DNA from: Prochlorococcus marinus CUG1438
GTDB lineage: Bacteria; Cyanobacteriota; Cyanobacteriia; PCC-6307; Cyanobiaceae
Length of the DNA stretch: 64,000 nucleotides
Direction: 5' to 3'
NCBI GenBank assembly: GCA_017644325.1
Contig: JAEPLS010000001.1
Location: 248,001-312,000, forward strand
Shown here one piece after another: positions 35,171 to 38,756 of the stretch. Within the stretch, counting starts at the first letter, position 1. Each line of letters opens with the position of its first letter. The notes beneath the pieces were generated by a model that did no database searches, had not been told where the DNA came from, and saw only the letters and a program-made list of their open reading frames with translations. Position numbers and translations under genes: made by a program.

Positions 35171-35530
35171 ATGAAAAAGGAGTCATCTACCTATATAGAT
35201 TTATCTAAAAAGCAACTCGAAAAACTTAAAGAATTTTACATTCAAAAAAAAGTTGAATCGATGAGTCATCAAGAACTCAAACAGTACGTGCTAGAAATTA
35301 TTTCTCATCAGATAAACAACACCATCGGCAAAGAAGAAGAAATGGAAGCTTGGAATGAAATGTCAGATTTTTTTGGAGAGCAATTTGAGTTATTTATCTT
35401 AGAAGTCAAAACAAAATTTTGTAATGAAAAGAACTCAGTTGAAAATGAAATAGATCCTCAGCAACAAAGATTAAATTTACTTGAAAAGAATTGTTTAGAT
35501 AAAAAGCAAAAGGATATGTGGGATGACTAG
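35171..35530 (+). CDS. Hypothetical protein, acidic and helical
   Basis: A 119-residue protein of unknown function. It is hydrophilic, rich in Lys, Glu and Gln, and predicted helical throughout, with a middle section EEEMEAWNEMSDFFGEQFELFILEV and a tail DKKQKDMWDD. There is no signal peptide, no membrane segment and only two cysteines without a motif. It stands alone between two long gaps and next to the restriction-modification genes. It may be a core gene of this lineage or island cargo; the sequence alone does not decide. Confidence 0.65.
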   Translation: MKKESSTYIDLSKKQLEKLKEFYIQKKVESMSHQELKQYVLEIISHQINNTIGKEEEMEAWNEMSDFFGEQFELFILEVKTKFCNEKNSVENEIDPQQQRLNLLEKNCLDKKQKDMWDD

Positions 35531-35789
35531 AACTTCTTGTAAAACAAAAATATACCTTGACTATAAAAACCGATAAATTTTGTAATAAAATGAGGAATAA
35601 GTTAGTCATAGACTAATCTGAAAAGATATTTGTTTATAAATAAGGAGAAAACAAGAAAACATTCAAGTTTTTATTACTTAGTGGAGTTAATTTGAGACCG
35701 AAAATATCAAGACATTTCTTCTTATGAACTATAATCTTTAAAATTTTACTTAATTTTTATTAATTAATTTCATAAAGAGGATCAATTAA

Positions 35790-36620
35790 ATGGTAATAAC
35801 ACCATTAAATAAGAATAAACTGGAAAATTTTTTCAATCGAGATGCACAAAATCTACTTAAATATTTTTTATTTAAAGCAATCTTTTCTCAACCGGAATTA
35901 GTCAATAATCAGTCCGAGATTCCTATTCAAGTCCCAAAAGAACATATAGAACAATGGTTGGTCCAATGTTTAGGAGCAGATCCTGTCGGTTCTGGAAGTT
36001 ATCCTGTAGATATTATCAATCTCAATAAAAAATATGGCGCAGATGCAAAAATGCTCTCCTGGAATGGCAAGAAAGGTTCTTTATCGGGAGAAACCTCGTT
36101 AGCACAAAAATTTAAGGATGCAGGTAATGACCTAGATGATGCCTTTAGGAATAGACAATTCGATGGGATTGTTAATGATTGGTCTAAATTATTAAAAAAT
36201 AAATTATTGCATGTTAAAAATGACTACAAAGGATTAGACGAAATTTATTATTTTTTTGTTATTCGTCAAAATAATATTTTTCATGTATGTGGAATGGAGG
36301 TTGACATAAACAAAATAGATTATATTTGTGTTGACAGAACCTCTTCGGCATCTATATGGATCAAAAATCTTATAGATTCAAATTATGGAGAGTCAAAAAT
36401 ATATAAAGCGAAAAAAAGGATGGAATTAAGACTCTATCCTTATAAATGGATAGAAAATAATTTAGTAATTAGTTTTGATAACTCAACTTTAAATATTGAA
36501 AATAAAGAATTGATCGGTATGGATATTAATGAATTATATTCACATTCATTTTATAATTTTACAAATTTGTTCAAAACAATTATTGGAGACCCAAAGTTAG
36601 ATACTTTTAAAAATAAGTAA
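35790..36620 (+). CDS. Candidate type II restriction endonuclease (PD-(D/E)XK-like)
   Basis: A 276-residue protein I do not recognise by name. Residues 66-89 read PVGSGSYPVDIINLNKKYGA then DAKML: Asp74 and the triad-like Asp85-Ala-Lys87, eleven residues apart, fit the PD-(D/E)XK nuclease core (P-[V]-D ... D-x-K). A following Glu/Asp-rich segment and beta strands (IYYFFVIRQNNIFHVCGMEVD) fit the fold. It lies 1.2 kb from a complete C5-cytosine methyltransferase, and unknown ORFs beside orphan-looking methyltransferases are commonly the cognate nuclease. An SD-like AGAGGA stands eight bases before the ATG, unusual among these genes. Nuclease activity is inference. Confidence 0.6.
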   Translation: MVITPLNKNKLENFFNRDAQNLLKYFLFKAIFSQPELVNNQSEIPIQVPKEHIEQWLVQCLGADPVGSGSYPVDIINLNKKYGADAKMLSWNGKKGSLSGETSLAQKFKDAGNDLDDAFRNRQFDGIVNDWSKLLKNKLLHVKNDYKGLDEIYYFFVIRQNNIFHVCGMEVDINKIDYICVDRTSSASIWIKNLIDSNYGESKIYKAKKRMELRLYPYKWIENNLVISFDNSTLNIENKELIGMDINELYSHSFYNFTNLFKTIIGDPKLDTFKNK

Positions 36621-36849
36621 AAAGACTTTGCTTAAAAGTAATTAAATTTTTCTTAACTAAAGTGACCATTCTCAGCACTAAAGATGGTTATAATTTTATA
36701 CCCACTATTCACAAGAAAAAATTCAAGAGAAACAAATATTGCCTAAAAGTGCAATACTTTACGCACGTACAAAGATGGATGCAGAAAACTATTGTATTTT
36801 AAGTAAGGATTTTATAAATGTTAATAACATTAAAAATTTTCTAAATTAA
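36621..36849. other. Gap between candidate nuclease and glycosylase holding two short frames
   Basis: One frame from GTG 36662 to a stop at 36802 encodes 46 residues (ILSTKDGYNFIPTIHKKKF then a basic tail); another from about 36694 to 36849 includes LPKSAILYARTKMDAENY and reads up to the stop just before the glycosylase ATG. The string SAILYAR resembles the start of serine recombinases, but nothing downstream continues that fold. Either could be chance or a gene remnant. Confidence 0.3.
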
Positions 36850-37461
36850 ATGTACTTAGAGTCAAAAAGTATTATTCAGAATCTTCAAAGTCAAGATAAG
36901 ACTTTTAGTTTAATAGTTAAGCAAATAGGTTATATAAATTTAGAAAAAAAAGAACTTAACTTTGAAGAATTGATAAAAATTATAATTAATCAACAACTTT
37001 CAAACCATATATCAAGCATAATTTTTCAACGTTTAAGGGACAAAATTAATAACTCCGAACTAATCTCACCTTTATCAATAATTGATTTTGATAATAAAAA
37101 ACTCAGGGACTTAGGTATTTCTCATTCAAAGATTTCTTTTATGAAAGAGACTGCTAAATATTTTATGGATTATCCATACATAATAAAAAAATGGGAAACC
37201 ATGAATGATGAAGATGCAAAAATTAAAATTCAAGAATTAAAGGGGTTTGGTCCTTGGTCTGCAAATATTATTCTATTATTTTATATGGGTAGAAATAATG
37301 TATTTCCATATAATGATTCAACTTTACAAAAAGCATATTTTAAAATTTATGGTGAAAGATTATCATCAAATCTCTCTCAAATTAATTGGGCAAGACCTTA
37401 TAGAAGTATAGTTGCGAGATATCTTTGGAAGTGGGTAGATAATGGTGCGAAAAAAATCTAA
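36850..37461 (+). CDS. AlkA-type HhH-GPD DNA glycosylase
   Basis: A 203-residue base-excision glycosylase of the HhH-GPD superfamily, AlkA/3-methyladenine glycosylase II branch. The substrate-side helix reads INQQLSNHISSIIFQRL (about 46-62), the helix-hairpin-helix is LKGFGPWSANIILLF (130-144), and the catalytic Asp is D156 in FPYNDSTLQKAY. It has no cysteines, so the 4Fe-4S loop of MutY/Nth/MIG enzymes is absent. It sits between the candidate nuclease and the methyltransferase, in the same orientation as the nuclease, 229 bases after it. Role in the cassette is unknown; repair of alkylated or deaminated bases is the family function. Confidence 0.82.
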   Translation: MYLESKSIIQNLQSQDKTFSLIVKQIGYINLEKKELNFEELIKIIINQQLSNHISSIIFQRLRDKINNSELISPLSIIDFDNKKLRDLGISHSKISFMKETAKYFMDYPYIIKKWETMNDEDAKIKIQELKGFGPWSANIILLFYMGRNNVFPYNDSTLQKAYFKIYGERLSSNLSQINWARPYRSIVARYLWKWVDNGAKKI

Positions 37462-37504
37462 TTATTTATATAAATCTTATACAATCATGAAATTAAATTC
37501 AGTC

Positions 37505-38518
37505 TTAAGATCCATTTTTTCTTAAATAATTATAAATAATTGATGAGAATTTTTTAAAAATATCTACCGTTACTGAGTTACCTGCTTGTTTATATAGTTG
37601 CGTATTTGGAACGTCTCTGGGTAACTTGAAAGTTCTTGGGAATCCTTGAAGGTTAAAGCATTCTCTAGGTGTAATTTTTCTAATACCATAATCATCCTTA
37701 ATTAAAGGAACATTATGACCCCCTGTCCCCATATTTGCTGTCAAAGTTGGACATACTCCACTTTTGTTTTCTCTGACATAAACTCTTCTCCACTGATAAA
37801 AAGTATTCTTTTTAGTAATAGATCCTATTAAATCATTATAATTATATTTATCTTTCCTATAGTAATACTTTTCATCTACAGCATTACTTTCTAGAAAATC
37901 AGAAATAGGTTTAAGTTTAATCTTTTTTTCAGTAGGAAATAGTTTACTTAAATATGTTGATTTATGTTTTGAAGAATCAAAACAAATATCTTTGTCCTCC
38001 AGAAAACAAAAAATAAAAGTTCTTTCTCTGTTTTGTGGAACACAAGTATATTCACAAGTATTCATAATTTTTGAAAGAACACAATATCCAGTATTTTCTA
38101 AACTTTCTTGAATTATTCTAAATGTTTTTTTCTTATCATGAGTATAAATATTTTTAACATTTTCTAGTAAAAGAACTTGTGGTTTTTTGGGTAACTCATT
38201 TATTAATCTTATAATTTGAAAAAAGACATCACCTCTTTTATCTACAAATCCTTTTTGATAACCTGCAACAGAAAATGCCTGACAAGGAAAACCCCCAACA
38301 AGTACGTCAACTGCTTCTAAATCTTTTCCTTGTAATTGATTAATGTCTATTTCATAAAATGGGTGAGAGAAATTTTTTCTATAAGTTTTTGAAGCATATC
38401 TATCAATATCTGTTCCCCATACAATTTTAAATTTTTCTTTATCAGAGAAACCAAGTTCGATTCCACCAACTCCTGAAAATAATCCTCCTACCTTATAAAC
38501 CTTATTTTCCATATTCAA
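37505..38518 (-). CDS. DNA (cytosine-5-)-methyltransferase
   Basis: Transfers methyl from SAM to C5 of cytosine in a specific site. All key motifs are present in order: motif I LFSGVGGIELGF (13-24), motif IV with the catalytic Cys79 in GGFPCQAFS, motif VI E119-N120-V121, motif VIII Q162-N-R-E-R166, a target-recognition region at about 180-275, and motif X QAGNSVTVDIF (311-321). 337 residues is a complete type II enzyme. A second start at ATG 38512 is possible. It is transcribed towards the glycosylase gene; its stop is 44 bases from that of the glycosylase. The recognition site cannot be read. It is the firmest part of the restriction-modification call. Confidence 0.95.
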   Translation of the reverse strand: MNMENKVYKVGGLFSGVGGIELGFSDKEKFKIVWGTDIDRYASKTYRKNFSHPFYEIDINQLQGKDLEAVDVLVGGFPCQAFSVAGYQKGFVDKRGDVFFQIIRLINELPKKPQVLLLENVKNIYTHDKKKTFRIIQESLENTGYCVLSKIMNTCEYTCVPQNRERTFIFCFLEDKDICFDSSKHKSTYLSKLFPTEKKIKLKPISDFLESNAVDEKYYYRKDKYNYNDLIGSITKKNTFYQWRRVYVRENKSGVCPTLTANMGTGGHNVPLIKDDYGIRKITPRECFNLQGFPRTFKLPRDVPNTQLYKQAGNSVTVDIFKKFSSIIYNYLRKNGS

Positions 38519-38632
38519 CTATATTAAAAATAACATTAAAATACTCTAGATATTTTATGAGAAATGTTTCAAATCTTTAATGATATTTTTAAATTTTAGA
38601 ATCTAATTTTCTTCAGATCTCAATCAGATTAT

Positions 38633-38666
38633 TAAAAAAGACCTCAAGTGACATAACCTGAAGTCT
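38633..38666 (-). terminator. Rho-independent terminator of tRNA-Asn
   Basis: On the minus strand, AGACTTCAGG and CTTGAGGTCT form a ten-pair stem (two or three G-U pairs) around an eight-base loop, followed by six T residues. It begins 19 bases after the 3' end of the tRNA-Asn gene, so it serves that transcript, and it isolates the tRNA from the methyltransferase gene beyond. Confidence 0.85.
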
Positions 38667-38684
38667 TAGAAATCTGATATTTAA

Positions 38685-38756
<72 letters not shown>

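What the first reader, a model, noticed from the sequence alone, without database searches (positions are those of the whole stretch)
35790..38518. Restriction-modification island with an embedded base-excision glycosylase
Seen: a complete C5-cytosine methyltransferase (PCQ, ENV, QNRER, GNSV motifs), an unknown 276-aa protein with a PD-(D/E)XK-like Asp...Asp-x-Lys core, and between them an AlkA-type HhH-GPD glycosylase. Known: DNA methyltransferases beside unknown ORFs commonly form type II systems; streamlined high-light Prochlorococcus genomes rarely keep such systems. Inference: this is a small acquired defence cassette, and the glycosylase may belong to it, for example to repair deaminated or alkylated bases arising at methylated or cut sites, or to attack modified phage DNA. 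I do not know a described three-gene set of this composition.
Basis: partly seen in the sequence, partly recalled or inferred. Interest (0 to 1): 0.75.

Follow-up and report, generated by a model that had tools for sequence, protein, structure and literature searches.

The report
Mobile restriction cassette with DNA glycosylase
A Prochlorococcus cell carries a recently acquired DNA-cutting defence cassette, made of a methyltransferase, an undescribed type of restriction enzyme, the ruins of a probable second cutting enzyme and a DNA-repair glycosylase that travels with them; it is a known kind of system with some unusual parts.

Summary
The three genes and the island are real. The 276-aa protein (U276) matches no Pfam, NCBIfam or PADLOC family. 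It has 18 relatives, 17 of them within 1.6 kb of a C5 methyltransferase (MT), and an invariant E..D..D-x-K site. Its AlphaFold model resembles PD-(D/E)XK restriction enzymes, including the GCNGC cutters NhoI and Eco15I, though without a significant Foldseek match. It is very probably the restriction enzyme. The MT's target-recognition region matches MTs paired with Bsp6I-type enzymes, so GCNGC is the likely site. The cassette sits between a core gene and tRNA-Asn, a spot empty in 8 of 20 congeners checked. It is 97.7% identical to one in Prochlorococcus AG-347-L20, while flanks are 81-86%: recent transfer.

The AlkA-type glycosylase moved with the cassette and recurs beside the same MT type in two other lineages, so it probably belongs. 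Its substrate is untested; I favour methylation-derived lesions over phage DNA. Some relatives stack two or three unrelated restriction enzymes on one MT. This is a new variant of type II restriction-modification.

The parts
35171..35530 (+). 119-aa core gene (DUF7326), left flank of the insertion spot; not part of the cassette
   Evidence: Pfam PF24012 E 4e-18; found beside rpaA in all 20 congeneric regions fetched
35589..38695 (.). Extent of the transferred cassette, bounded on the right by the 3' end of tRNA-Asn
   Evidence: Two pieces of 97.6% and 97.8% DNA identity to Prochlorococcus AG-347-L20 (L004); flanking pieces 80.8% and 86.3%
35790..36620 (+). U276: putative type II restriction endonuclease of a family not in Pfam, NCBIfam or PADLOC; PD-(D/E)XK-like (E54, D74, D85, K87)
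   Evidence: 18 relatives, 17 within 1.6 kb of a C5 MTase; invariant site; AF2 model pLDDT 88; VIA neighbours are restriction enzymes and other nucleases; no family
36664..36849 (+). Remnant of X247, a second putative nuclease: the two ends of the gene, about 550 bp lost from the middle, frames out of register
   Evidence: Comparison with intact L004:10873-11616
36850..37461 (+). GLY: AlkA/Mag-type HhH-GPD DNA glycosylase, 203 aa, with the putative catalytic Asp156
   Evidence: PF00730; PDB sequence matches 3s6i E 7.6e-19, 4hsb, 4b21, 2h56, 2yg8, 2jhj, all named 3-methyladenine glycosylases or glycosidases; D156 invariant in 5 of 5 aligned
37505..38518 (-). C5-cytosine DNA methyltransferase with a target-recognition region (residues 167-279) like that of MTs paired with Bsp6I-family enzymes
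   Evidence: PF00145; TRD comparison
38638..38667 (-). Intrinsic-terminator-like hairpin downstream of tRNA-Asn, part of the sequence that recurs beside the cassette in L004
   Evidence: Terminator scan (3 sites found in the region, 1.1 expected in shuffles); recurrence in L004
38684..38757 (-). tRNA-Asn(GTT), right border of the insertion spot
   Evidence: ARAGORN; same border in the 16 of 20 congeneric regions where it was resolved

Best explanation
A mobile type II restriction-modification cassette inserted at the 3' end of tRNA-Asn. MT methylates C5 of cytosine in GCNGC (site inferred from its target-recognition region). U276, a PD-(D/E)XK-like nuclease, cuts unmethylated GCNGC in incoming DNA (pairing and residues shown; fold predicted; cutting and site inferred). 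A second putative nuclease of the same methylation regime, X247, lies between U276 and GLY in a sister cassette and has been deleted here without loss of the rest, as expected if it was redundant. GLY is an AlkA-type base-excision glycosylase carried by the cassette. The role I commit to is repair: it clears abnormal bases that the C5 methyltransferase creates or favours, first N3-methylcytosine made by mis-methylation, second thymine from deaminated 5-methylcytosine. That GLY moved with the cassette is shown; that it serves the MT is inferred (about 0.5: N3-methylcytosine about 0.3, T:G mismatch about 0.2). The stated confidence is for the restriction-modification and mobility part with GLY as a travelling part of it.
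For: U276 lies within 1.6 kb of a C5 MTase in 17 of 18 loci, which come from a Prochlorococcus sister, a gammaproteobacterium, Methylophilaceae, Bacteroidota, Clostridia, Hydrogenothermaceae and candidate-phyla bacteria; two loci are from one MAG. In the 18th (SAR86) a related MTase sits on another contig. E54/D74/D85/K87 are invariant, spaced 20/11/2, against 20/10/2 for E49, D69, Q79 and K81, whose changes inactivate Eco15I (PMC11347163, passages). VIA second look: all 50 entries shown (of 154 with Z 2 or more) are nucleases by title or recall; 3ndh Z 8.2 (rmsd 5.0, 168 aligned), NhoI 8rpx Z 7.1 (3.2, 114), HinP1I 2fkc Z 7.0 (3.7, 149), Eco15I 8q5o Z 6.9 (3.6, 113). TRD identity is 41-58% to 25 related MTs paired with U276, X247, Bsp6I-, PLD-type, R345 or an unknown 356-aa protein, versus 11-19% to 14 other Prochlorococcus C5 MTs, 14 of the 29 other loci returned. 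A Mycoplasma MTase annotated Bsp6IM was assigned GCNGC by SMRT and restriction tests (PMC9465063, passages; the passages give the base as m5C in one table and m4C in another; its sequence was not compared here). Transfer: cassette 97.6-97.8% identical, flanks 81-86%. GLY: in L004 its ATG follows the X247 stop codon directly; in L009 GLY, a 149-aa ORF and MT overlap in one strand; L153 has X247-R345-MT-GLY. GLY relatives lie beside or near O6-methylguanine methyltransferase genes in L148 and L149. No AlkB and one other HhH-GPD protein in this genome.
Against: No activity was measured. Foldseek alone gave no significant match (best E 0.24, DpnI), and Z of 7-8 can arise by common arrangement. L020 pairs U276 with an MTase whose TRD is unlike (16%). 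GCNGC is not avoided in the window (95 found, 92 expected), so there is no footprint of long restriction. GLY is linked to the system in few lineages, the RM-linked GLYs do not form one supported clade, and GLY's dN/dS between the two strains is 0.34 against 0.05 (MT) and 0.07 (U276) on 14 changed codons, so it may be a loosely held passenger. AlkB is also absent from 11 of 14 control genomes, so its absence here is weak evidence.
Confidence: 0.72

Rival explanations
1. The glycosylase is a passenger: an ordinary AlkA-type repair gene picked up by the mobile element and not functionally tied to the methyltransferase; the rest is a plain type II system.
For: Such genes are not rare (41 of 386 genomes of the phylum, own included, at E <= 1e-10) and mostly not beside this MT type (MT found in the flanks of 1 of the 29 non-own loci returned; further matches were not returned as loci); RM-linked GLYs are not one supported clade; higher dN/dS than the other two genes; unlinked in 6 of 17 U276 genomes.
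Against: The best-scoring of the 29 relatives is the one beside the same MT type and X247; in L009 GLY is joined to MT by overlapping ORFs and in L004 it abuts X247 stop-to-start; an unrelated SacI-type R-M system on Aeromonas and Comamonas plasmids also has an AlkA-type gene next to its restriction enzyme.
Confidence: 0.3
2. The glycosylase is an antiviral effector that excises modified bases from phage DNA, leaving abasic sites, as Brig1 and Brig3 do, and so complements U276, which modified phage DNA would escape.
For: Glycosylases do act as phage defence (Brig1 PMC11078745, Brig3 PMC13160076; starts of abstracts and passages); the insertion spot holds other restriction systems in relatives.
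Against: Brig1 and Brig3 are assigned to the uracil-DNA glycosylase superfamily, not HhH-GPD; GLY's PDB matches are named 3-methyladenine glycosylases; PADLOC has no model matching it.
Confidence: 0.12
3. GLY does the work of Vsr: it removes thymine from T:G mismatches that arise when 5-methylcytosine deaminates, as Mig.MthI does.
For: Vsr-like genes occur beside U276, X247 or MT relatives in L020, L028, L030 and L162, so mutation at methylated sites matters to this family of cassettes; Mig.MthI, a HhH-superfamily T/G glycosylase, counters 5mC deamination (PMC2714593, passages).
Against: L153 has both a Vsr-like gene and GLY in one cassette, so they are not alternatives there; GLY is AlkA-like, whereas Mig.MthI is compared with MutY.
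Confidence: 0.2
4. U276 is not the nuclease but an accessory of the methyltransferase, and X247 was the real restriction enzyme, so the window now carries a dead system with a solitary methyltransferase.
For: X247 has an invariant acidic/Lys pattern (6 of 6), is the only recognised partner of MT in L161, and is broken here.
Against: U276 partners MT in 11 loci without a second enzyme among those searched for, has a complete E..D..D-x-K site and a restriction-enzyme-like model; dN/dS 0.07 between the two strains suggests purifying selection.
Confidence: 0.08

Closest known systems
Bsp6I-type type II R-M systems (GCNGC; the site of Bsp6I itself is recalled)
   Same: Same MTase type with the same conserved target-recognition block (TRD identity 42-50% to the five MTs beside Bsp6I-family enzymes); small cassettes on plasmids.
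   Different: U276 does not match the Bsp6I family PF09504. None of the three Bsp6I plasmid cassettes tabulated (L031-L033) has a GLY within the 3 kb looked at, though the chromosomal L153 has both.
BisI family (NhoI, Eco15I; methyl-dependent GCNGC cutters)
   Same: Similar predicted fold (Z 6.5-7.1), near-identical spacing of active-site residues, and the same inferred five-base site.
   Different: BisI enzymes need methylated sites (PMC11347163, start of abstract); U276 lives beside a C5 MTase and must spare methylated DNA. Its motif is DxK where NhoI and Eco15I have QVK and QIK. No sequence match.
Mig.MthI (T/G mismatch glycosylase of a methanogen)
   Same: HhH-superfamily glycosylase tied to cytosine methylation; that its gene lies beside the MthTI R-M system is recalled.
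   Different: Compared with MutY in PMC2714593, whereas GLY matches 3-methyladenine glycosylases.
Brig1/Brig3 antiviral glycosylases
   Same: DNA glycosylase in a defence setting.
   Different: UDG superfamily; no R-M partner mentioned in the passages read.
R.PabI-type restriction glycosylases
   Same: Glycosylase in an R-M setting (PMC10273834, start of abstract and passages).
   Different: There the glycosylase is the restriction enzyme; here a PD-(D/E)XK-like nuclease fills that place and GLY is HhH-GPD (the terms HhH, helix-hairpin-helix and AlkA do not occur in that paper's text).

Membership tests
Type II restriction-modification system | DNA methyltransferase gene with complete catalytic motifs | tested here: met
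   PF00145 E 6.9e-79, PADLOC MTase_II E 5e-102, PCQ/ENV/QNRER/GNSV present
Type II restriction-modification system | Endonuclease gene kept close to the MTase across lineages | tested here: met
   U276 within 1.6 kb of a C5 MTase in 17 of 18 loci; that U276 is an endonuclease is inferred
Type II restriction-modification system | Endonuclease cuts and MTase protects the same site | not testable with these tools
   Needs enzymes; the TRD only suggests GCNGC
PD-(D/E)XK nuclease superfamily (U276) | Acidic residue in helix, Asp, then (D/E)xK | tested here: met
   E54, D74, D85-x-K87 invariant in 18 of 18 aligned sequences; E54 lies in helix 50-60 of the model
PD-(D/E)XK nuclease superfamily (U276) | Shared fold with solved members | tested here: inconclusive
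   VIA best Z 8.2, all 50 rows shown are nucleases, but Foldseek E 0.24 at best
BisI family (U276) | Sequence relationship to BisI, NhoI or Eco15I | tested here: not met
   Profile search of PDB sequences listed neither NhoI nor Eco15I up to E 10; BisI itself was not compared
Bsp6I-type GCNGC methyltransferase (MT) | Shared target-recognition region | tested here: met
   42-50% to the five MTs beside Bsp6I-family enzymes, against 11-19% for 14 controls
AlkA/Mag DNA glycosylase (GLY) | HhH-GPD domain with catalytic Asp | tested here: met
   PF00730; 3s6i E 7.6e-19; D156 invariant in 5 of 5; its catalytic role is by recall of the family
AlkA/Mag DNA glycosylase (GLY) | Excision of alkylated bases | not testable with these tools
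   No assay
Tycheposon (mobile element of Prochlorococcus) | Insertion at a tRNA gene | tested here: met
   tRNA-Asn borders the cassette; tRNA 3'-end repeats in L004
Tycheposon (mobile element of Prochlorococcus) | Tyrosine recombinase in the element | tested here: not met
   No further gene-sized ORF between the 119-aa gene and tRNA-Asn besides U276, GLY and MT; so not filed as one

The most novel reading that the evidence does not exclude
In this family of cassettes an AlkA-type glycosylase removes the N3-methylcytosine that the C5 methyltransferase makes by mistake, so that R-M systems carry their own remedy for methylation damage, a bacterial counterpart of the (recalled) DNMT-ALKBH2 link in animals. 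At the same time GCNGC methylation acts as a shared licence on which unrelated restriction enzymes (U276, X247, Bsp6I-type, PLD-type, R345) accumulate and are lost one by one.
Probability: 0.2. Interest if true: 0.78.

Novelty: new variant of a known kind. Interest (0 to 1): 0.48.

Why it matters
It gives a probable restriction enzyme family (U276), found from ocean picoplankton to candidate-phyla bacteria but without a model in Pfam, NCBIfam or PADLOC, and a plausible link between the fold of methyl-dependent GCNGC cutters and a methyl-sensitive one. It shows putative restriction enzymes piling up on one methyltransferase, which would explain how cells can gain and lose them without dying. 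If the glycosylase repairs lesions made by the methyltransferase, the cost of cytosine methylation in bacteria becomes directly testable in a four-gene cassette.

Tried and rejected
Viral origin: scans of viral contigs with U276, X247, GLY and the U276 alignment found no relative, and U276 has none in the phage or plasmid collections. Direct repeats flanking the cassette inside the window: none convincing. GCNGC avoidance: none. One clade of RM-linked glycosylases (window, L009, L153, L145): not supported (3 label changes, 0% of 200 bootstrap trees with one; long branches). X247 model: low confidence (pLDDT 60); no significant Foldseek match; VIA best Z 7.8 to I-Ssp6803I, then mostly other PD-(D/E)XK nucleases, taken as a hint only. 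Sequence profile of X247 against PDB: no convincing nuclease match. Literature on R-M with a HhH-GPD or mismatch glycosylase: two searches gave 0 papers each. On 3-methylcytosine and C5 MTases the listings (6 papers; 10 shown of 13) held nothing decisive for bacteria as far as titles and starts of abstracts show, nor did the passages read in one of them (PMC8508711). Recalled, from no call: that A. fulgidus AlkA (2jhj) and D. radiodurans AlkA2 (2yg8) excise 3-methylcytosine, the organisms of the PDB entries, that DNMTs make 3-methylcytosine, that 3ndh is ThaI, that Bsp6I recognises GCNGC and NgoFVII GCSGC. REBASE could not be searched, so U276 may be listed there.

The first alignment of the deletion with MAFFT misplaced the left end; the placement given rests on the sequences printed, the blastn pieces and the tblastn; my attempt to walk to the break points failed because the two stretches were not in register. 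One search failed (file not found) and its aim was met.
Full report
What is there. The window lies in a 1.63-Mb, 4-contig genome. Its flanks are 81-86% identical to Prochlorococcus AG-347-L20, so I take it as Prochlorococcus. Three ORFs match the finding: U276 (35790-36620 +), GLY (36850-37461 +) and MT (37505-38518 -). MT is a C5 methyltransferase and GLY a HhH-GPD protein whose PDB sequence matches are mostly 3-methyladenine glycosylases. U276 matches nothing in Pfam, NCBIfam or PADLOC up to E 1, and one PHROG of unknown function at E 0.012.

U276 is probably a restriction enzyme, by company, by residues and by predicted fold. One scan of genome contigs gave 18 relatives; one, L004, is a near-copy in another Prochlorococcus, and two are from one MAG. 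In 17 of 18 a C5 MTase lies within 1.6 kb. The exception, SAR86 locus L005 (75% identical to U276), has its MTase on another contig. The 18 aligned sequences (the window's and 17 relatives) keep E54, D74, D85 and K87. The AlphaFold model (pLDDT 88) gave no significant Foldseek match (best E 0.24, DpnI). The VIA second look showed 50 of 154 rows, all nucleases by title or recall: 3ndh Z 8.2, NhoI Z 7.1, HinP1I Z 7.0, Eco15I Z 6.9, SfiI, EcoRV and others. NhoI and Eco15I cut methylated GCNGC (PMC11347163, start of abstract and passages); the residues whose change inactivates Eco15I (E49, D69, Q79, K81) have nearly the spacing of U276's.

Target. MT's target-recognition region (residues 167-279) is 41-58% identical to those of 25 related MTs, all of which share the block YQxRRxYxRxNxxxxxPTLTANMGxGGHNVP, but 11-19% to those of 14 other Prochlorococcus C5 MTs used as controls, 14 of the 29 other loci returned. 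Five of the 25 lie near Bsp6I-family enzymes (three by PGAP name, two by Pfam) and four near PLD- or NgoFVII-type enzymes. A Mycoplasma MTase annotated Bsp6IM was assigned GCNGC (PMC9465063, passages; base given as m5C in one place and m4C in another, and its sequence was not compared here). L020 is an exception: its U276 sits beside an unlike MT (TRD 16%). GCNGC is not under-represented in the window (95 against 92 expected).

A fourth gene. In L004 the same cassette has a 247-aa gene, X247, between U276 and GLY. The window keeps roughly its first 60 and last 135 bases; about 550 bp are gone (U276 and GLY are 229 bp apart here, 785 bp in L004) and the frames are out of register. A near-repeat (AAGAARAAATTYAA) at both break points suggests slippage or microhomology. 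X247 keeps an acidic/Lys pattern in 6 of 6 sequences; its model is weak (pLDDT 60) but leans to PD-(D/E)XK nucleases. In L161 it is the only recognised partner of MT, so it can plausibly serve alone.

Stacking. Of 27 MT-bearing loci among the 30 tabulated, 8 have two or three unrelated putative restriction enzymes: L004, L007 and L009 (U276 + X247; X247 in two frames in L007), L008 (U276 + Bsp6I + X247), L014 (Bsp6I + U276), L028 and L166 (PLD-type + X247; PLD-type in two separate pieces in L166), L153 (Bsp6I + X247 + R345). R345 matches a PADLOC type II restriction enzyme model (E 7.9e-9). These loci were found through U276, X247, MT or GLY and are not a random sample, and only enzymes in the query set were looked for. 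I infer that once GCNGC is methylated, further enzymes for that site can be gained, or lost as here, at little risk; the lone U276 of SAR86 fits this. I made no literature search aimed at stacking, so I do not claim it is unreported.

Mobility. Between window and L004 the cassette (35589-38695) is 97.6-97.8% identical while the flanks are 80.8% and 86.3%. U276 and GLY were each found in 1 of 200 genomes of the genus, the own one (L004's genome was reached by another tool). The spot between the 119-aa core gene and tRNA-Asn was examined in 20 of the 60 other genomes, picked by hand: empty (295-341 bp) in 8, 1.2-7.5 kb long in 8, unresolved in 4. One occupied spot holds a type I R-M system and two hold related Mrr-helicase proteins (six proteins from four of the eight occupied spots were scanned). 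In L004, copies of the tRNA 3' end with its terminator lie at the right end of the cassette and again 1.2 kb further, with an AlpA-like protein between them. No recombinase-sized ORF lies in the window's island.

The glycosylase. It moved with the cassette and keeps the Asp that is invariant in 5 of 5 aligned relatives. It recurs in two other lineages: L009 (Bacteroidota; U276, X247, MT, 149 aa, GLY, with overlapping ORFs from GLY to MT) and L153 (same phylum as the window, other family; X247, R345, MT, GLY). Of the 29 non-own GLY loci returned from the phylum (41 of 386 genomes matched, own included), one has MT in its flanks, and it is the best-scoring. L153 was found through GLY and is therefore a biased case. 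In 17 U276-carrying genomes GLY relatives are linked in 2, elsewhere in 6, and not found in 9. RM-linked GLYs do not form a supported clade. GLY's dN/dS between the two strains is 0.34, against 0.07 (U276) and 0.05 (MT), on few changes. So GLY is an occasional, perhaps repeatedly recruited, accessory. Relatives sit near O6-methylguanine methyltransferase genes (L148, a distant one, and L149), and the PDB matches include two entries (2jhj, 2yg8) that I recall as excising 3-methylcytosine. L153 has both Vsr and GLY, which speaks against GLY being merely a Vsr substitute. This is why, among functional roles, I put N3-methylcytosine before T:G; a passenger is about as likely as either; none is tested.

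Verdict. A real, recently acquired type II system with an undescribed probable restriction enzyme family, an eroded second nuclease and a travelling repair glycosylase: a new variant of a known kind, moderately interesting.

Noticed in passing
L010 10825-12393 - and the MTs of L011-L013, L015-L018: In eight U276 cassettes, mostly of candidate-phyla bacteria (L011 and L012 from one MAG), the C5 methyltransferase is fused to a LexA-like N-terminus (HTH + S24 peptidase; Pfam and NCBIfam run on L010 only; an alignment of all eight keeps the AG and the Ser/Lys positions that I recall as cleavage and catalytic sites). This suggests a self-regulated or SOS-responsive R-M system; the four papers listed by one search did not look to be about it.
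   Followed up: partly
L005 3219-4055: SAR86 carries a lone U276 (75% identical to the window's) directly downstream of a glmS-like gene (named by reading its sequence), with its MTase on another contig beside an unknown 356-aa protein.
   Followed up: partly
L145 2717-5480 and L156 2573-5336: Aeromonas and Comamonas plasmids have an AlkA-type glycosylase next to a SacI-family restriction enzyme and a D12-class methylase: a second, unrelated R-M setting for such a glycosylase.
   Followed up: partly
L079 3041-8995, L073 2894-6001, L080 2330-5452: The same tRNA-Asn spot in other Prochlorococcus holds a type I R-M system or Mrr-helicase proteins, so it looks like a defence hot spot.
   Followed up: partly
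L009 12548-14289: Beside the MT lie an unknown 149-aa protein (also in L007) and an OGG-like glycosylase (PF21790) next to GLY.
   Followed up: no
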